Source of the DNA: Tahibacter aquaticus
Lineage (GTDB): Bacteria > Pseudomonadota > Gammaproteobacteria > Xanthomonadales > Rhodanobacteraceae
Direction: 5' to 3'
Assembly: GCF_004363655.1 (NCBI RefSeq)
Contig: NZ_SNZH01000002.1
Span: 62,001-126,000, forward strand
DNA: 64,000 bases
In this document: positions 11,740 to 18,789 of the stretch, piece by piece
Position numbering within the stretch: position 1 is the first letter of the stretch
Layout: each line of letters begins with the position of its first letter
The notes under the pieces: model-generated
Told to the model about the DNA's origin: nothing
The model's database searches: none
What the model saw: the letters and a program-made list of their open reading frames with translations, nothing else
Program-made: the position numbers and the translations under genes

Positions 11740-13377
11740 TTACTTCAGCGACGGCAGTGCCTTCGCCGCCGCCTGCACCTGGGCAAATTCCAGGCCGAAG
11801 CGCTTGAGGTATTTGCGCAGGCGGTCCGCATCGTTGCTCGACGTGCGCTTCTCGCGGCTGGCCTGGAACAAGGTGCGTCCGGCGTCGCTGGCGCTGCGCG
11901 CGGCGGCGCAGACACGCAGCACCTCGCACAGCTGCACGCGATCGAAACGATCGATTTCCCCGATAGCGTCGCCAAGCACCGCCTGCAGCAGGCTGTCGTG
12001 GCCATTGCCGGCAACACCGCGGCGCGAATGACCCCAGAGCCGGCCCAGGCGCGCCGTCTCTTCGTCGACCACTTCGACGGTGATACGGCCCTGGCTGGCC
12101 AGGGTGGCCATGCGCGTGACCGAGGCGCCCAGATCGCGGAAATTGCCCGGCCAGGTCGCGTCCACGCTCATGGCGAAGCGCAGGTAGCGCTCGCGCGCCT
12201 CGCGGTTGAAGGTGATGCGTTCGCTGTTGAGGCGGGCGAAGCGCTCCAGTTCGAAATCGAGGTTCGGCTCAATGTCTTCGGCGCGCTCCTTCAGGCCGGG
12301 CAGATAAAATGTCCACAAATTCAGGCGTGCGTACAGGTCTTCGCGGAAACGGCCCTGCAGCACGGCTTCGGCCAGGTCGCGATTGGTGCCGGCGATCAGC
12401 TGGAAATCGCTGCTGACTTCGCGGTCGCCACCCAGTGGCGGGAAGCGCTTGTCCTCGATCGCGCGCAGCAGCATGGCCTGTTCGTCCAGGCCCAGCTCGC
12501 CGATTTCATCGAGAAACAGCAGGCCGCCATCGGCACTCTTGAGCAGGCCGGCGCGCTCGCCCTGGGCGCCGGTGAACGCGCCGCGCACGTGGCCGAACAG
12601 GGCGCTGCCGGCGCCGTCGCCACGCAGGGTGGCGCAGTTCACTTCGACGAAACGGCCCTTGAGGTCGTGCCGGCTGCGTTTCAGCTCGAACAGGTTGCGC
12701 GCGAGCATGCTCTTGCCCGCGCCGGTCGGGCCCAGCAGCAGCATCGGCGCACGCGAACGCACGGCGACGCGTTCGATCTGTTCGATCATGCGGTTGAAGG
12801 CCGGGCTGAGCGTGGCGATACCGCTCTTGAGAAAACTCGCCGTATCGGCGCGTTCGCGGGCGAAACGCTGGGCGATGCGGTCGTAGCGGGCCAGGTCCAG
12901 GTCGATGACGGCGTAGCTGCCGCAGTCGCCGGTGCGCTGCTTGGGCGGCGGCGAGGTCTGTAGCAGGCGCGCCGGGAAGAAGCGCGCCTCGGTCAGCAGG
13001 AACCAGCAGATCTGCGCCACGTGCGTGCCGGTGGAAATGTGTACGAGATAGTCTTCGCGCTCGACATCGAACGGATAGCTGCGCGCGAACTCGTGCAGCG
13101 CGGCGAATACCTGTTCGAAATCCCAGGGGTCGGCCAGGTGGAAATCGTGGATCTGGACCTGGGTTTCCGGACTGACCTGGGCCAAGTCGTGGCGCAAGGT
13201 AGCGGCAAGCTTGGTGAAGCGCCGCTCGTCCAGCAGCAATTCCAGGCGGGCGACGGCGAGGTCTTCGTACATGCCGATGGCCACGGTAGGGCGCCAGCGT
13301 TCCCAGCGTGCAGGCCCTGTAGCCGCATCCAGCACCGTGCCGACGAAGCCGATCACGACCAGCGGTTTGATCTGCAT
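11740..13377 (-). CDS. rtcR: RtcR, sigma-54-dependent activator of the RNA-repair operon
   Basis: 545-residue enhancer-binding protein. Residues about 1-180 form the CARF-like regulatory domain of RtcR (LVVIGFVGTVLDA, WRPTVAIGMYEDL, DYLVHISTGTHVAQICWFLL). In Salmonella this domain senses tRNA fragments with 2',3'-cyclic phosphate ends. The AAA+ domain shows Walker A GPTGAGKS, the sigma-54 contact loop GAFTGA and Walker B GLLFLDEIGEL. The C-terminus carries a Fis-type helix-turn-helix (about 490-540, ARSASDAGRTLFQASREKRT). It is transcribed divergently from the RNA-rich leader of rtcB, the standard arrangement. A 20-bp palindrome sits 14 bp before its start. High confidence from full-length architecture. 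Confidence 0.97.
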   Translation of the reverse strand: MQIKPLVVIGFVGTVLDAATGPARWERWRPTVAIGMYEDLAVARLELLLDERRFTKLAATLRHDLAQVSPETQVQIHDFHLADPWDFEQVFAALHEFARSYPFDVEREDYLVHISTGTHVAQICWFLLTEARFFPARLLQTSPPPKQRTGDCGSYAVIDLDLARYDRIAQRFARERADTASFLKSGIATLSPAFNRMIEQIERVAVRSRAPMLLLGPTGAGKSMLARNLFELKRSRHDLKGRFVEVNCATLRGDGAGSALFGHVRGAFTGAQGERAGLLKSADGGLLFLDEIGELGLDEQAMLLRAIEDKRFPPLGGDREVSSDFQLIAGTNRDLAEAVLQGRFREDLYARLNLWTFYLPGLKERAEDIEPNLDFELERFARLNSERITFNREARERYLRFAMSVDATWPGNFRDLGASVTRMATLASQGRITVEVVDEETARLGRLWGHSRRGVAGNGHDSLLQAVLGDAIGEIDRFDRVQLCEVLRVCAAARSASDAGRTLFQASREKRTSSNDADRLRKYLKRFGLEFAQVQAAAKALPSLK

Positions 13378-13504: not shown

Positions 13505-13522
13505 TTGGCACGACCCTTGATA
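13505..13522 (+). promoter_or_regulatory. Sigma-54 (-24/-12) promoter of the rtc RNA-repair operon
   Basis: TTGGCACG (13505-13512), then CCC after one base, then TTGAT (13517-13521). TGGCAC and TTG are separated by exactly 5 bp, matching the RpoN consensus TGGCAC-N5-TTGCA except for A in place of C in the -12 GC. It faces rtcB, and RtcR is encoded divergently. The expected transcript start is near 13532, giving a leader of about 875 nt before rtcB. Confidence 0.85.
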
Positions 13523-13667: not shown

Positions 13668-13693
13668 GGCCGCAGCGAATAGGCGTTGCGGCC
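13668..13693 (+). ncRNA. Hairpin in rtc leader (GGCCGCA/TGCGGCC)
   Basis: GGCCGCA (13668-13674) pairs perfectly with TGCGGCC (13687-13693). The 12-nt loop carries GCGAAT, the same hexamer that begins each downstream leader RNA unit. It lies between the sigma-54 promoter and the first 104-nt repeat. It may be part of the first structured RNA. Confidence 0.4.
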
Positions 13694-13721
13694 GCACAGG
13701 ACACACGGTTTGAACGCGGCA

Positions 13722-13825
13722 GCGAATGCCGGCAGGACTACATGGGATTCAGCGCCGCAAGGCATGCGGGGTGAAAGTCCTCGCCGCAGCGCAGGCTGCG
13801 TGGCGGAACACAGACGCACTGAATG
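13722..13825 (+). ncRNA. Leader RNA repeat, copy 1 (104 nt, structured)
   Basis: First of two tandem 104-nt units in the untranslated rtc leader, 100/104 identical to the copy at 13947. Predicted fold: GGCAGGACT (13731-13739) pairs with AGTCCTCGCC (13776-13785, one bulged C). It encloses a GCC-GCAA-GGC mini-hairpin (13754-13763), and GCAGC-GCAG-GCTGC follows (13786-13799). A 5' motif GCGAATG with GACTACA downstream is shared with the other leader RNAs. No coding frame is supported. It is probably a non-coding RNA processed from the RtcR-controlled transcript. Whether it is a Y RNA variant or another repair-associated RNA is not known. Confidence 0.7.
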
Positions 13826-13826
13826 T

Positions 13827-13842
13827 CCCGCCTTGGTGCGGG
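13827..13842 (+). ncRNA. Short hairpin after leader repeat 1
   Basis: CCCGC (13827-13831) and GCGGG (13838-13842) pair around a 6-nt loop directly after the first 104-nt repeat. It may end or space the RNA unit. Confidence 0.35.
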
Positions 13843-13892
13843 GTTGTCTTGCCATCCTCGTCACTGGCGCGTTCATTGTTTGCAAGGGAAAT

Positions 13893-13918
13893 GATCACGG
13901 CGAATGGACGCCGTGATC
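13893..13918 (+). ncRNA. Strong 10-bp hairpin between the two leader repeats
   Basis: GATCACGGCG (13893-13902) and CGCCGTGATC (13909-13918) form a perfect stem with a 6-nt loop (AATGGA). It separates the two 104-nt repeats and would be a natural processing or stability element. No T-run follows, so it is unlikely to terminate transcription. Confidence 0.5.
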
Positions 13919-13946
13919 GCATAGAACACGGAGTTTGGACACGGCT

Positions 13947-14050
13947 GCGAATGCCGGCAGGACTACATCGGATTCAGCGCCGAAAGGCATGCGGGGTGAA
14001 AGTCCTCGCCGCAGCGCAAGCTGCGTGGCGGAATACAGACGCACTGAATG
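13947..14050 (+). ncRNA. Leader RNA repeat, copy 2 (104 nt, structured)
   Basis: Second copy of the structured leader unit. The four differences from copy 1 all spare the stems. In the mini-hairpin loop GCAA becomes GAAA, keeping a GNRA tetraloop. In the second hairpin loop GCAG becomes GCAA, also GNRA. That pattern supports selection on RNA structure. The flanks differ from copy 1, and identity fades upstream of GCGAATG, with related sequence still visible for about 20 nt (ACACGG then TTTG). It starts 225 bp after copy 1. Confidence 0.7.
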
Positions 14051-14093
14051 CAGTCTTTCCACGACCTCGTCGCAGCGTGTCCATTCGGACGAA

Positions 14094-14118: not shown

Positions 14119-14157
14119 GCCAACCGTCACACCGAAACCCGCGGCCTTGCCGCAAGC

Positions 14158-14203
14158 GGCGAATGTCTGTTGCGACTACATCTCCAAAATCGATGTCGCC
14201 ACA
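14158..14203 (+). ncRNA. Third leader RNA unit, related 5' motif and hairpin
   Basis: Begins with GCGAATGTC and carries GCGACTACATC, echoing GCGAATGCC and GGACTACATC of the 104-nt repeats. GCGA and CATC pair with GATG and TCGC across a CTA bulge to give a hairpin around 14173-14200. It is shorter than the repeats and diverges after the hairpin. It probably belongs to the same RNA family, but boundaries are uncertain. Confidence 0.4.
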
Positions 14204-14220
14204 CCGTTGTTCGTTGTCGC

Positions 14221-14390
14221 CGCTTGCTGCAGTGCCGCGAATGCATGCCGGTCTACAGGATTGCGAGGGGCGCGGGTTCGAATCCCGCCGGAGCGAACAT
14301 GGCGTGGAAAATACGCCATCGAACCGTAGCTCAGCGCGTTAGAGCATCGTACGTGACTGGCACCACCTTGTCGTTTCACTGCATCTGACC
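14221..14390 (+). ncRNA. YrlA-like bacterial Y RNA with circularly permuted tRNA module
   Basis: The order of tRNA parts is permuted. Anticodon-stem 3' strand TGCGA (14262-14266), 5-nt variable loop GGGGC, T-arm GCGGG-TTCGAAT-CCCGC (14272-14288), acceptor 3' strand CGGAGCG (14289-14295). Then a closing hairpin ATGGCGT/ACGCCAT (14299-14319, 7-nt loop), acceptor 5' strand CGAACCG (14320-14326), TA, D-arm GCTC-AGCGCGTTA-GAGC (14329-14345), and anticodon-stem 5' strand TCGTA (14347-14351), which pairs with TGCGA (one G-U). Two further helices close it: GCCGGTC (14247-14253) with GACTGGC (14355-14361), and TGCAGTG (14228-14234) with CACTGCA (14377-14383). This is the architecture known for bacterial Y RNAs (a Ro-binding stem plus a tRNA-mimic module), which are often encoded next to rtcB. 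The acceptor helix has two mismatches, and G18 of the D-loop is C. The end lies about 18 nt before rtcB. Confidence 0.75.
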
Positions 14391-14407: not shown

Positions 14408-15631
14408 ATGAGCACCCAACTGCATCACACCCTGCACGCTGACGGCGGCGTGCCGATCAAGGCCTGGATCGAAGGCGTTCCGCTGGATGAAGGCGCGCGC
14501 CGGCAGCTGGGCAACATGGCCAAGCTGTCCATCGTCGGCCCCTGGATCGCCGTCATGCCCGACGTACACCTGGGCATAGGCGCCACCGTCGGCTCGGTCG
14601 TTCCCACCGAAGGCGCGATCATTCCGGCCGCGGTCGGCGTGGATATCGGCTGCGGCATGATGGCCTACCAGACCACCCTGCAGGCCAGCCAGCTGCCCGA
14701 CAATCTGTTTGGTATCCGTAGCGACGTGGAACGCGCCGTTCCGCACGGTTTCGTCACGGTGGACGGGCGCAGCGCCAAGGGCAACTGGATCGTCGCACCG
14801 AATTCCGCCACCACGCGCTGGCGAGGCCTGGAACAGCGCTACCGTTCCCTGGTCGAACGCCATCCGCGTATTTCGCACAAGTCGCCCTTGAGCCAGCTTG
14901 GCTCGCTCGGTGGCGGCAATCACTTCATCGAACTGTGCCTGGACGAAAACGACCAGGTATGGGTAATGCTGCACTCGGGCTCGCGCGGTGTCGGCAACGG
15001 TATCGGCCAGTATTTCATCGAGCGAGCGCGCAACGAGATGCAGCGCCAGCAGGCCAACCTGCCGGATCGCGACCTCGCCTACCTCAGCGAAGGCAGCGTG
15101 CTGTTCGACGACTATGTGGAAGCCGTGGGCTGGGCGCAGGAATACGCGGCAGAAAACCGCCAGCAGATGATGGAAACCGTATTAGGCGTACTGCGCAAAC
15201 AGTTGCCCAGCTTCCAGCTCACGCGAATGGCGATCAACTGTCACCACAACTACGTACAACGCGAGACGCATTTCGGACGCGAACTGCTGATCACGCGCAA
15301 GGGCGCGGTGAGTGCGCGCAAGGACCAGCTGGGCATCATCCCCGGCAGCATGGGCGCAAAGAGCTTCATTGTGCGCGGCCTGGGCAACGAGGAAAGCTTC
15401 TGTTCCTGTTCGCACGGCGCCGGCCGCGTGATGAGCCGTACCGAAGCCAAGAAGCGCATCACCCTGGGCGAACACCGCGCGGCCACGGCGCATGTGGAAT
15501 GCCGCAAGGATGCGGACGTGGTCGACGAATCGCCGGCCGCGTACAAGCCGATCGACCAGGTGATGGCGGCGCAGCGCGATCTGGTGGAGATCGTGCACAC
15601 CCTGCGCCAGGTGGTTTGCGTCAAGGGTTGA
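14408..15631 (+). CDS. rtcB: RtcB RNA-splicing/repair ligase
   Basis: 407-residue GTP- and Mn-dependent ligase joining 2',3'-cyclic phosphate or 3'-phosphate RNA ends to 5'-OH ends. It closely follows the E. coli type. Metal ligands lie in AVGVDIGCGM (Asp and Cys) and in GGGNHFIELC, LHSGSRGVGN and NCHHNYVQ (His). The guanylylated His is in CSCSHGAGRVMSR. GTP contacts include PGSMGAKSF. It ends with LRQVVCVKG as in E. coli. ATG 14408 is chosen because it aligns with the usual N-terminus; a TTG 12 bp upstream is possible. It is the first protein gene of the sigma-54 operon, after the RNA leader. The next gene follows after 12 bp. Confidence 0.97.
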   Translation: MSTQLHHTLHADGGVPIKAWIEGVPLDEGARRQLGNMAKLSIVGPWIAVMPDVHLGIGATVGSVVPTEGAIIPAAVGVDIGCGMMAYQTTLQASQLPDNLFGIRSDVERAVPHGFVTVDGRSAKGNWIVAPNSATTRWRGLEQRYRSLVERHPRISHKSPLSQLGSLGGGNHFIELCLDENDQVWVMLHSGSRGVGNGIGQYFIERARNEMQRQQANLPDRDLAYLSEGSVLFDDYVEAVGWAQEYAAENRQQMMETVLGVLRKQLPSFQLTRMAINCHHNYVQRETHFGRELLITRKGAVSARKDQLGIIPGSMGAKSFIVRGLGNEESFCSCSHGAGRVMSRTEAKKRITLGEHRAATAHVECRKDADVVDESPAAYKPIDQVMAAQRDLVEIVHTLRQVVCVKG

Positions 15632-15643
15632 AGGGGCAGGTGC

Positions 15644-16336
15644 ATGCGCAGCGATATGCACGAGGCATTGATTGAACGGCCGCGGTGCCGCTTGCGCCGC
15701 AAGACGCACCGCGGCAACAAGCCACGCCTGCACGAATGGGCCGGCGAAGACAGTTTTGGCGGCAACTACCGGCCCAAACGTCATCGCACGAAATATTTCG
15801 ACGATCTCATTTCGCCGCTGCGTCGCTGGCTGCAGGCCCAGGCCGGCCCACCCTGGGACAAGGTATGGAGTGAACTTAGTGCCAGCATCGATGCACGTAC
15901 CACGGTCGGCCAGCATCTGCTCGACCATGTACGCCGGGAAGTCACGCTGCATTGCGACTACGACCTGAAGCAACGTTGCGCCGTCGAGCGGCTGCGGCCG
16001 AATCACCGCACGCGGCAGCCGCACGTGGTCACCGGGTTGTACGTGGATCCGCGCAATGGACTGCTGCGCTGGAAAGGTCCGCATTCGATCCGGCCTGTGC
16101 GTGACGGCAGCCCGACAGAGCGTGGCGATGTGGTTGCGGTGAAGGGGAACGCGGTTTGCGTCAAGCTGAAAGGCAACTGGTTCGATGCCGACATCCGCGT
16201 GCTGCCGTGGGACGCAAAAAGCAAGACAGCGTTCGACCTGCAATGGCAAGGCCAGCGCTGGATCGTGCTGCGCAAGCGCAGCCTGAACTCGAACGAATTG
16301 CGTGACTATGGATTGAAAAACGACGTCGACGCCTGA
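15644..16336 (+). CDS. Uncharacterised basic protein inserted between rtcB and rtcA
   Basis: 230 residues, strongly basic at the N-terminus (RPRCRLRRKTHRGNKPRLHE), with no signal peptide or membrane helix. A conserved-looking core reads FDDLISPLRRWLQAQAGPP then WDKVWSELSASI and QHLLDHVRREV, and the C-terminal third is beta-rich (VVAVKGNAVCVKLKGNWFDA). I have seen WDKVYSE-like motifs in scattered uncharacterised proteins but cannot name the family. It lies 12 bp after rtcB and 30 bp before rtcA, so it should be induced with them. Its basic character suggests RNA or RNP binding (inference). The usual E. coli order is rtcB-rtcA with nothing between. Start could also be the ATG at 15656. Confidence 0.8.
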   Translation: MRSDMHEALIERPRCRLRRKTHRGNKPRLHEWAGEDSFGGNYRPKRHRTKYFDDLISPLRRWLQAQAGPPWDKVWSELSASIDARTTVGQHLLDHVRREVTLHCDYDLKQRCAVERLRPNHRTRQPHVVTGLYVDPRNGLLRWKGPHSIRPVRDGSPTERGDVVAVKGNAVCVKLKGNWFDADIRVLPWDAKSKTAFDLQWQGQRWIVLRKRSLNSNELRDYGLKNDVDA

Positions 16337-16366: not shown

Positions 16367-17407
16367 ATGAACACGAAAAAGGATTCGGAATTACTGCTGG
16401 ACGGCTCCCAGGGCGAGGGAGGCGGACAGATTCTGCGCAGCGCACTGGCCTTGTCCATGCTGAGTGGACGGCCGTTCCGGCTGACAAAAATTCGCGCCGG
16501 CCGCAGCAAGCCGGGTTTGATGCGCCAGCACCTGGCCTGCGTGCGCGCTGCGGCGCTGGTCGGCAATGCGCAGGTCGAAGGCGCCGAGATCGGCTCCACC
16601 GAAATCGGCTTCCGCCCCGGCACCATCCGCGGCGGCCAGTTCGAATTCAAGGTCGGCAGTGCCGGCAGCACCATGCTGGTTTTGCAGACCGTCTTGCCCG
16701 CCTTGCTGCGCGCCGATGCGCCCAGCCGCATCAGCATCGAAGGCGGTACGCACAACATGTTGGCGCCAACCAGCGACTTCATCGCCGACGCATTCCTGCC
16801 GCTGCTGGCGCGCATGGGTGCGCAGGTGCAGATGACGGTGGAGCGGCACGGCTTCTTTCCGGCCGGCGGCGGACTGGTACACGTCGAGGTGCGTCCCGGC
16901 CCGCTGCAGCCCTTGCACCTGCACGAGCGCGGCGCGAGCACCGGCCTGGAAGCGATCGCGCTGCTGCGCAGCCTGCCCCAGCATATCGGCGAACGCGAAC
17001 TGGAAATCGCGGCGCGGCGGTTGCCGCTGACGGCATCGGCGCGGCGCGATCTGTCCGCCGGCTTCGGTCCGGGCAACGCGCTGGTGCTCAAGGCCAGCTA
17101 TGCCAATGTGACCGAAATCGTGGTCGGCCTGGGCGAACATGGGCTCAGCGCCGAAAGCGTTGCCGAGAACGCGTGCCGCGAGCTGCGCAGCTATCTTGCC
17201 CATGGCGCGCCGGTCGGCGAACACCTGTCCGACCAGTTGCTGTTGCCGCTGCTGCTCGCCGGCGGCGGCAGCTTCGTCACCGGCAGGCCCAGCTCGCACC
17301 TGGAAACCAATGTGGCGGTGATCCATGCCTTCGGCGCCGCCCAGGTGAGCATCGCGCCGGACCAGGGCAATCCGCAACAGCACTTTCGCGTCAGCCTGGA
17401 AACCTGA
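16367..17407 (+). CDS. rtcA: RtcA, RNA 3'-terminal phosphate cyclase
   Basis: 346 residues, the usual family length. ATP-dependent conversion of RNA 3'-phosphate to 2',3'-cyclic phosphate, producing RtcB substrates and RtcR inducers. The N-terminus has the hallmark LLDGSQGEGGGQILRSALAL, and RAGRSKPGLMRQHL follows. The central segment shows GSAGSTMLVLQT and GGTHNMLAPTSDF. The adenylylated His lies in RPSSHLETNVAVI near the C-terminus. Third gene of the rtc operon; a 14-bp-arm hairpin terminator follows 22 bp after the stop. Confidence 0.97.
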   Translation: MNTKKDSELLLDGSQGEGGGQILRSALALSMLSGRPFRLTKIRAGRSKPGLMRQHLACVRAAALVGNAQVEGAEIGSTEIGFRPGTIRGGQFEFKVGSAGSTMLVLQTVLPALLRADAPSRISIEGGTHNMLAPTSDFIADAFLPLLARMGAQVQMTVERHGFFPAGGGLVHVEVRPGPLQPLHLHERGASTGLEAIALLRSLPQHIGERELEIAARRLPLTASARRDLSAGFGPGNALVLKASYANVTEIVVGLGEHGLSAESVAENACRELRSYLAHGAPVGEHLSDQLLLPLLLAGGGSFVTGRPSSHLETNVAVIHAFGAAQVSIAPDQGNPQQHFRVSLET

Positions 17408-17474: not shown

Positions 17475-17559
17475 CCGCCGCACAGGTCGGTATCGCGCCT
17501 GCGGCAACCGCGCCGTACGGCAACAATTCCATTCGTATGCATTACTCCGCGGGGCCTGC

Positions 17560-18789
17560 ATGCTGCTCACCCTAAGCACCACTCACCAGCCGGCGACCGA
17601 TCTGGGCTACTTGCTGGCCAAGCATCCCGATCGCCTGCAGCGTTTCGGCCTGTCCTTCGGCCAGGCCTGTGTTTTCTACAGCGAGGCCAGTGCACAGCGC
17701 TGCACGGCCGTGCTGATGCTGGATATCGATCCGGTCGGCCTGGTGCACGGCAACGGCGAGAACAGCGCCGGGCCTCTGGCGCGTGCGCCAGTTCGCCCTG
17801 TACGGCGAAACCGACGAATTCGGCCTGCCCGTGCGCTATGACTGGGCCAGCGACTATCGCGGCAGTGCCGTGGTGGTCTACGGCCACACGCCGGTGCCCG
17901 AGCCGGAATGGATCAAGCGCACGGTCTGCATCGATACCGGTTGCGTCTTCAGCGGCCGCCTCACCGCCTTGCGCTATCCGGAAAAGCAATTCGTCAGCGT
18001 GCCAGCGGCACAGGTCTACTACGCACCGGTCAAGCCGTTCGCTGGCGATGCGCCCGTGACGGCGGTGGCACGCGATGCGCAGATGCTCGACTTCGCCGAC
18101 GTCAGCGGCAAGCGGGTGATAGACACGCGCGTACTCCATCGCGTCACCGTGCGCGAGGAAAACGCCGTGGCCGCGCTGGAAGTGATGAGCCGCTTCGCCA
18201 CCGATCCGCGCTGGCTGGTCTACCTGCCGCCGACCATGGCGCCGCCGGAAACCGCTGCCGACGGCGAGCTGCTGGAACGGCCGCAGGAGGCGATTGCCGC
18301 CTTCCGCCATACCGGCGTGGCCGAGCTGGTCGCCGAAGAAAAGCACATGGGATCGCGCGCCTTGCCGCGGCCGATGCAGCCCCGATCCGCGTCACTGCGC
18401 ACCGCTACATCGATCTGTCCGACGAGGCCAGCGCCGCCGCCGCCGTGGCATGGTGGGAACAGCTCACCGCGACAGGCGGCGAAGGCATGGTGCTGAAGCC
18501 GGCCGAAGGCCTGGCCCGCGGGCCGCGCGGACTGGCGCAGCCGGCGCTCAAATGCCGTGGCCGCGAATACCTGCGCCTCATCTACGGGCCCGAATACACC
18601 GCGCCGGAAAACCTTGCGCGCCTGCGCCAGCGCCGCGTGCGCGGCAAGCAGAGCCTGGCCCTGCGCGAATTCGCCCTGGGCCTGGAAGCGCTGTACCGCT
18701 TCGTCGAGCACGAGCCGCTGTACCGCGTGCACGAATGCGTGTTCGGCGTGCTGGCGCTGGAGAGCGAGCCCATGGATGCGAGTCTGTAG
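17560..18789 (+). pseudogene. Hen1-Pnkp RNA-repair remnant (two deletions, frameshifted)
   Basis: Three pieces in order. (1) 17560 to about 17760, frame 1: the start of bacterial Hen1 ([47 protein letters not shown]), the domain that docks onto the Pnkp ligase. (2) About 17765-18358, frame 2: the end of the Pnkp phosphatase domain ([53 protein letters not shown]) and the start of its ligase domain ([39 protein letters not shown], with the nucleotidyl Lys). (3) About 18360-18789, frame 1: the ligase C-terminus ([50 protein letters not shown]). Missing are the Hen1 methyltransferase, the Pnkp kinase, most of the phosphatase and the middle of the ligase. Not functional as a complete repair system. 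Confidence 0.85.

What the first reader, a model, noticed from the sequence alone, without database searches (positions are those of the whole stretch)
14221..14390. Permuted tRNA-like Y RNA (YrlA-type) in the rtcB leader
In order: anticodon-stem 3' strand, variable loop GGGGC, T-arm with TTCGAAT loop, acceptor 3' strand, a capping hairpin ATGGCGT/ACGCCAT, acceptor 5' strand, TA, D-arm, anticodon-stem 5' strand. The two anticodon strands TGCGA (14262-14266) and TCGTA (14347-14351) pair across the permutation, and two outer helices (GCCGGTC/GACTGGC, TGCAGTG/CACTGCA) close the RNA. Bacterial Y RNAs of the YrlA type have a tRNA-mimic module attached to a Ro-binding stem and often lie beside rtcB. 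Unusual points: no Rsr/Ro60 gene in the window, the RNA sits inside the sigma-54 operon leader, the acceptor helix has two mismatches, and the D-loop lacks G18.
Basis: partly seen in the sequence, partly recalled or inferred. Interest (0 to 1): 0.9.

Follow-up and report, generated by a model that had tools for sequence, protein, structure and literature searches.

The report
Y RNA array before RNA-repair genes
The leader of a bacterial RNA-repair operon carries not one but four small 'Y RNAs', one of them a rearranged tRNA look-alike, and the Ro protein expected to hold them is encoded elsewhere in the genome; the kind is known, but the mixed array and the split layout are an unusual variant.

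Summary
Rfam's YrlA model finds the RNA end to end (14234-14380, 51.9 bits, E 1e-10), under its cut-off of 69. In 20 homologous units the outer, inner and acceptor strands pair better with their own partner than with swapped ones; the anticodon strands only weakly so. Put back in tRNA order, 19 of 20 modules, the window's included, are called tRNAs; 0 of 20 shuffled and 0 of 20 native-order ones are. Two degraded tRNA genes is ruled out.

Rsr/Ro60 is on contig C13, behind a sigma54-like site and beside a well-formed YrlA. Of 147 genomes (own included) 27 have rtcR; Y units sit at the locus in 17 of 17 with Rsr, 1 of 10 without. Best reading: an RtcR/sigma54-induced leader releases four Y RNAs that bind Rsr made elsewhere. 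Binding, processing and function are inferred. The window's YrlA looks partly decayed.

The parts
11740..13377 (-). rtcR, sigma54 activator (divergent)
   Evidence: Pfam RtcR 263 bits, Sigma54_activat 169 bits
13394..13409 (.). palindrome TTATCC-N4-GGATAA, candidate RtcR site
   Evidence: exact pattern in 6 of 6 leaders of this genus that lack rsr (window, L030, L032, L033, L034, L036); not in G004 or G007, where a looser pattern matches G007 only
13506..13521 (+). sigma54-like promoter TGGCACGACCCTTGAT
   Evidence: matched in the same 6 of 6 leaders; the -12 element reads GA, not GC
13668..13693 (+). GC-rich hairpin (10 bp)
   Evidence: fold z -4.62; similar hairpins follow rsr in relatives (sequences, read by eye)
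13711..13875 (+). Y unit 1, type C, with an extra 3' hairpin
   Evidence: model R1 121.2 bits, built partly from it; inverted arms 13711-13725/13861-13875; RF02553 19.4 bits, E 0.3; fold z -1.36
13893..13918 (+). second GC-rich hairpin, part of the duplicated block
   Evidence: repeat D1, 86%; 10-pair stem
13936..14087 (+). Y unit 2, type C
   Evidence: R1 143.5 bits, built partly from it; RF02553 20.9 bits, E 0.1; alignment A1: 13 of 44 pairs with changes on both sides; fold z -2.20
14142..14237 (+). Y unit 3, compact Y RNA without a tRNA-like insert
   Evidence: R2 74.3 bits, built partly from it; A3: 18 of 23 pairs with changes on both sides; fold z -3.50
14228..14383 (+).
   Evidence: RF02553 51.9 bits, E 1.1e-10; fold z -0.95
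14408..15631 (+). rtcB, RNA ligase
   Evidence: Pfam RtcB 422 bits
15644..16336 (+). open frame of 230 aa with no Pfam match
16367..17407 (+). rtcA, RNA 3'-phosphate cyclase
   Evidence: Pfam RTC 259 bits

Best explanation
The rtcR-rtcB gap is a sigma54/RtcR-controlled leader that encodes four Y RNAs in a row: two type C units, one compact unit and one YrlA. Damaged tRNA ends activate RtcR; the leader is transcribed with rtcB and rtcA; processing frees the Y RNAs; their common stem (GCGAATG...GACTACA paired with GTC...TTGTCGC) binds Rsr, made from an unlinked rsr-yrlA locus with its own sigma54-like site. The loaded Y RNAs then gate Rsr and bring partners through their differing heads. For YrlA the tRNA-like head would tether PNPase or occupy tRNA-binding enzymes, as proposed for Salmonella and Deinococcus. 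Shown here: sequence, structure with covariation, synteny, link with Rsr. Inferred: the RtcR signal, processing, Rsr binding, partner recruitment.
For: YrlA match. Swap test on 20 units, own versus swapped mean helix length: outer 7.05/5.08, inner 7.15/4.79, acceptor 6.15/3.70 (each p 0.0002, the floor of 5000 shuffles), anticodon 3.40/3.01 (p 0.015). Un-permuted modules called tRNA in 19 of 20, shuffles 0 of 20, native order 0 of 20. Type C and compact structures beat shuffled and slid controls. rsr lies between rtcR and the Y array in 12 relatives and before Y units and rtcB in one more. Rsr in the own genome: vWA_Ro60 61 bits, TROVE 25.7 bits over a cut-off of 23, PDB 2nvo Rsr E 1e-21, with a YrlA of 64.5 bits about 90 bases behind it. 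Y units (R1, E under 0.01) in 17 of 17 rtcR+ rsr+ genomes and 1 of 10 rtcR+ rsr- ones, Fisher p 2e-6. Sigma54-like site before the unlinked rsr in 4 of 4 genomes of this genus.
Against: Score below Rfam's gathering cut-off. The window's YrlA has 5 of 7 acceptor pairs, two mismatches in the lower Ro stem, no G18, and a fold z of -0.95. The single-sequence fold of the two window type C units is not the consensus fold either, though it is in the four relatives folded. No expression, processing or binding data. The unlinked rsr loci lack the exact TTATCC-N4-GGATAA palindrome, so co-control by RtcR is not shown; the sigma54 patterns matched only 6 of the 13 relatives with rsr beside the array. Of the 17 Rsr genes, G098 has one in-frame stop and G133 is split in two stretches. 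The genome-wide TROVE search alone gave only 16.2 bits, under its cut-off. R1 was built from six of the units it is then used to detect, and relatives are not independent, so the Fisher p overstates the evidence. The sigma54 chance estimate uses a pattern written after seeing the sites.
Confidence: 0.7

Rival explanations
1. The window's YrlA copy is a decaying duplicate. The working tRNA-mimic Y RNA is the copy beside rsr on contig C13; in the leader only the compact and type C units still matter.
For: Longest acceptor run 3 in the window copy against 4-7 in the other 19 units; fold z -0.95 against -2.81 for the C13 copy, whose minimum-energy fold is close to the YrlA fold; RF02553 51.9 against 64.5 bits.
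Against: Outer and inner helices of 7 and 8 bp and a 5-bp anticodon helix are kept; three sister leaders (G005, G001, G006) keep a YrlA at the same place, with acceptor runs of 4, 6 and 7; ARAGORN still calls the un-permuted window module.
Confidence: 0.15
2. The structures act in cis: as a leader regulator of rtcB, or as a landing site or decoy for RtcR, RtcB or anticodon nucleases, without release as Y RNAs.
For: They lie between a sigma54-like promoter and rtcB; 14229-14232 can pair with two different partners (in unit 3 or unit 4), as in a switch.
Against: The stem motif is shared with units directly behind rsr, one with no rtcB after it in the 12 kb read (C13); Y units are missing in 9 of 10 rtcR+ rsr- genomes although 8 of those 9 keep rtcB beside rtcR.
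Confidence: 0.12
3. Remains of two degraded tRNA genes side by side.
For: T-arm and D-arm look like pieces of two tRNAs; sub-threshold YrlA hits on C16 and C4 are ordinary tRNA clusters.
Against: No tRNA in the window; covarying helices across the permutation; full-length YrlA match with the Ro stem; same order in 20 units from 13 genomes.
Confidence: 0.01

Closest known systems
YrlA (Rfam RF02553), bacterial Y RNA with tRNA-like domain
   Same: Ro-stem motif, permuted T-arm, acceptor and D-arm, place before rtcB (review passages of PMC8394870)
   Different: 51.9 bits against a cut-off of 69; two acceptor mismatches; D-loop without G18; rsr not in the operon
Salmonella rsr-yrlBA-rtcBA RNA-repair operon
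   Same: sigma54 promoter, RtcR, Y RNAs before rtcBA, more than one Y RNA (passages of PMC7790460, and PMC9879122)
   Different: rsr lies at another locus; four Y units of three kinds; an extra 230-aa open frame between rtcB and rtcA
RYPER (Rsr/Y RNA/PNPase) of Deinococcus radiodurans
   Same: Rsr and Y RNA present; likely mode of action (passages of PMC8394870, and PMC4726728)
   Different: No binding or nuclease data here

Membership tests
YrlA-type bacterial Y RNA | Match to the RF02553 covariance model end to end | tested here: met
   positions 1-114 of 114, E 1.1e-10
YrlA-type bacterial Y RNA | Rfam gathering score of 69 bits (a curator's cut-off, not a biological feature) | tested here: not met
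   51.9 bits; the rsr-linked copy has 64.5; therefore called YrlA-like and not filed as a certain Rfam member
YrlA-type bacterial Y RNA | Permuted tRNA-like module: T-arm, acceptor, D-arm | tested here: met
   ARAGORN on the un-permuted module: window called; 19 of 20 units in all (G005 not), 0 of 20 shuffles
YrlA-type bacterial Y RNA | Helices supported by covariation in homologues | tested here: met
   outer, inner, acceptor p 0.0002; anticodon weak, p 0.015
YrlA-type bacterial Y RNA | Encoded near an rsr gene | tested here: not met
   in this genome rsr is on another contig; it is beside the Y units and rtcB in 13 of the 17 rsr+ genomes, own included
YrlA-type bacterial Y RNA | Bound by Rsr in the cell | not testable with these tools
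   only the link of occurrence: 17 of 17 against 1 of 10
Type C units as YrlA | Canonical T-loop and D-loop in a permuted tRNA module | tested here: not met
   T-like loop TGAAAGT in 3 of 6 and variants in 3; no GG in the D-like loop; standard ARAGORN of 5 un-permuted; mitochondrial mode 4 of 5, but it also accepts 61-100 of 100 loop-shuffled versions of each, so only geometry fits
rtcBA RNA-repair operon | rtcR divergent from a sigma54 promoter, then rtcB and rtcA | tested here: met
   (promoter by sequence only)

The most novel reading that the evidence does not exclude
The array is a set of differently shaped tRNA look-alikes. Type C would be a second permuted tRNA architecture: hairpin a in the place of a long variable arm (class II), b as T-arm, c as capped acceptor, d as D-arm, closed by the anticodon stem, with the T-loop/D-loop elbow contacts lost on both sides together. 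One sigma54 leader would then supply Ro protein, made elsewhere, with several exchangeable heads, each recruiting or blocking a different tRNA-handling enzyme during tRNA damage.
Probability: 0.2. Interest if true: 0.75.

Novelty: new variant of a known kind. Interest (0 to 1): 0.5.

Why it matters
Bacterial Ro RNPs have been studied in only a few species, and what the heads of Y RNAs do is largely open. Here one small group offers a natural comparison: rsr in the operon, rsr elsewhere, rsr not found, with arrays kept or decayed accordingly, and several head types in one leader. That makes two questions directly testable in environmental bacteria: whether Y RNAs need Rsr, and whether different heads recruit different partners.

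Tried and rejected
Degraded tRNA pair: rejected. RF02553 hits on contigs C16 and C4 of the own genome: ordinary tRNA clusters; weak RF02553 hits ring in 13 of 14 control genomes, so sub-cut-off hits in the own genome were each looked at. Other Rfam families in the leader upstream of the YrlA (Acido-1, RsmY, two miRNAs): E 1.4 or worse. Type C elsewhere: a tail pattern over GTDB contigs gave 7 stretches, 4 of them units already in hand (T. harae, T. caeni, one Rhodanobacteraceae MAG, one Lysobacterales MAG) and 3 others, L086-L088. Of these only L087 has an R1 match at the pattern (21.9 bits, E 6e-4); I judge it chance, since it lies in overlapping long open frames, one TetR-like by eye, with no Ro core seen. 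L086 reads as coding by eye, but the frame list showed no frame there; L088 lies in open frames. No match in viral contigs. A shared sequence between T-arm-only heads and class II tRNAs of G020: the pattern matched only the two Y units themselves. Key papers (Chen 2014, Wang 2018, Sim and Wolin 2018, Sim 2020) are not in the library, so whether such arrays or type C appear there or in their supplements is unknown. The searches listed no paper on such an array (listings only; long lists were cut). Passages of PMC8058203 and PMC7824862 were seen and not used.

Full report
The observation. ARAGORN finds no tRNA in the window and the default Rfam scan lists nothing, but with a lax threshold YrlA (RF02553) matches 14234-14380 over its full length with 51.9 bits and E 1.1e-10. 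That is clearly not chance, but it is under the curated cut-off of 69 bits.

Homologues. The gap between rtcR and rtcB was taken from related genomes. YrlA-like units with T-arm and D-arm in permuted order were collected (22) and 20 of them, from 13 genomes, aligned. For each helix I compared the pairing of a unit's own two strands with that of strands swapped between units. Mean longest helix, own and swapped: outer 7.05 and 5.08, inner 7.15 and 4.79, acceptor 6.15 and 3.70, each p 0.0002 (the floor); anticodon 3.40 and 3.01, p 0.015. When the modules are rearranged into tRNA order, with an artificial anticodon loop, ARAGORN of 20 as tRNA, including the window's (G005 fails); it of 20 shuffled and 0 of 20 native ones.

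Results against a healthy YrlA in the window. Its acceptor pairs 5 of 7, its D-loop lacks G18, its lower Ro stem has two mismatches, and it folds no better than shuffles (z -0.95), while the copy beside rsr in the same genome reaches z -2.81 and folds nearly as expected. The window copy may be partly decayed.

The leader holds three more Y units. Unit 3 (14142-14237) is a compact Y RNA without an insert; 11 such units from 10 genomes give 94% paired cells and 18 of 23 pairs with changes on both sides, and no shuffle of 500 reaches this. Units 1 and 2 (13711-13875, 13936-14087) come from an 86% duplication. They share the Ro stem but carry a different head ('type C') of four hairpins inside a closing stem. 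In six units 91% of cells pair, 13 of 44 pairs change on both sides, 1 shuffle of 500 reaches that, and sliding the partner destroys it. Folded alone, the four relatives' units give the consensus fold but the two window units do not. Rfam has no matching family above cut-off. A model of type C scored over 90 bits in 4 of 398 genomes of the order (G000, G005, G006, G133) and also in G001, which one search does not list. A tail pattern over GTDB contigs found no further convincing case.

Reading of type C. Its order is: closing stem; hairpin a (absent in G133); hairpin b with a seven-base loop, TGAAAGT in 3 of 6 and close variants in 3; hairpin c directly stacked on b; T; hairpin d. This is the order of a permuted tRNA with a long variable arm. 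In tRNA order, standard ARAGORN calls only 1 of 5. The permissive mitochondrial mode of 5, but it also accepts 61-100 of 100 loop-shuffled versions of each, so this shows cloverleaf geometry and not tRNA identity. I keep it as the novel case only.

Where is Rsr? The window has none in its annotated surroundings, but the genome does: contig C13, an open frame of 556 codons, TROVE 25.7 bits over a cut-off of 23, vWA_Ro60 61 bits, PDB 2nvo Rsr E 1e-21; the genome-wide TROVE search alone reached only 16.2 bits. A YrlA of 64.5 bits follows it. In 12 relatives rsr lies between rtcR and the Y array; in G106 it precedes Y units and rtcB with rtcR about 10 kb off; in G000, G001, G005 and G006 it is elsewhere, in G006 together with Y units and a second rtcB. 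In a tree of 17 Rsr proteins G000 groups with G006 (100/98) and G001 with G005 (97/99) inside a clade of 13, 12 of them of the same family, so a foreign source is not indicated. Before the unlinked rsr a sigma54-like site stands in 4 of 4 genomes; such a string turns up in about 1 in 10,000 random 150-mers, but the pattern was written after seeing the sites. The same kind of pattern matched 6 of the 13 relatives with rsr beside the array. The exact palindrome TTATCC-N4-GGATAA, found in 6 of 6 genus leaders without rsr, was not found at these rsr loci.

Link with Rsr. Of 147 genomes (own included) 17 have Rsr and 27 have RtcR over cut-off; all 17 are among the 27. Two of the 17 genes look damaged: G098 has one in-frame stop and G133 is split. 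Model R1 finds a Y unit at the locus with E under 0.01 in 17 of 17 and in 1 of 10 without Rsr; Fisher p 2e-6. R1 shares the Ro stem with other Y units and was trained on units of five of these genomes; the genomes share ancestry, so p is only a guide. One of the ten, G035, shows no rtcB beside its rtcR. The single exception, G127, comes from an 80% complete genome; its leader still holds an rsr-like start (MANRSLFASQ..., about 30 codons, by eye against MANFQLFQSQ...). Within the genus, the two species without detected Rsr are the one with no Y unit (G002, 100% complete) and the one with decayed ones (G003, 87% complete; R1 E 0.18).

Mechanism. [quoted passage not shown] Rsr and YrlA bind PNPase and steer it to structured RNA, and the tRNA-like head is modified by tRNA enzymes (passages of the review PMC8394870). 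Loss of Ro proteins lowers Y RNA levels (passages of PMC4726728). By analogy the leader here would release its Y RNAs on tRNA damage to bind Rsr made from the unlinked locus. Everything after the sequence, its covariation and the link with Rsr is inferred.

Novelty. The YrlA itself is of a known kind in all but its score. From memory, Chen and co-workers (RNA 2014, not held) reported Y RNAs near Ro60 in more than 250 species, at least one tRNA-like in each, so several Y RNAs per species is probably known. The mixed four-unit array, the type C head and the separation of rsr from the array did not show up in the listings; the primary papers could not be read, so this is not a claim that they are unpublished.

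Noticed in passing
window 17551-18789: Behind rtcA, the start of Hen1 (Hen1_L 1-69 of 242) and two pieces of the Pnkp ligase (1-65 and 237-377 of 377) lie in separate open frames: a second RNA-repair system that looks broken here.
   Followed up: no
window 15644-16336: A 230-aa open frame between rtcB and rtcA has no Pfam match.
   Followed up: no
L109:3204-3360 (G127) and L064:4104-4180 (G133): Intact-looking tRNA genes sit inside the rtcR-rtcB leaders: tRNA-Asp(GTC) in both, tRNA-His(GTG) in G127. Spare copies of tRNAs that damage could remove?
   Followed up: partly
L063:3926-4893 (G106): 7.9 head-to-tail copies of a 124-base repeat, each carrying part of a Y RNA core, precede a complete compact Y RNA.
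   Followed up: partly
L035:3175-3464 (G007): A YrlA whose acceptor cap has grown to about 160 bases with several hairpin-like repeats.
   Followed up: no
L033 (G006, T. harae) with L065: The leader holds six Y units at E under 0.01, three of them compact, and a weaker seventh (E 0.2); a second locus carries rsr, two Y units and a second rtcB of another clade.
   Followed up: partly
window 14229-14232: These bases can pair with 14147-14150 of the compact unit 3 or with the 3' end of the YrlA unit 4: two exclusive helices, possibly tied to processing.
   Followed up: no
window 13668-13693 and 13893-13918: Strong GC hairpins; similar hairpins follow the rsr stop codon in relatives, and one remains in G002, which has no Y unit (by eye; fold).
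   Followed up: no
L028, L057, L058, L061 and others: A further head type carries a canonical T-arm after a GCCTTCGGGC-like hairpin but no D-arm, resembling the 3' half of a class II tRNA (sequences).
   Followed up: partly
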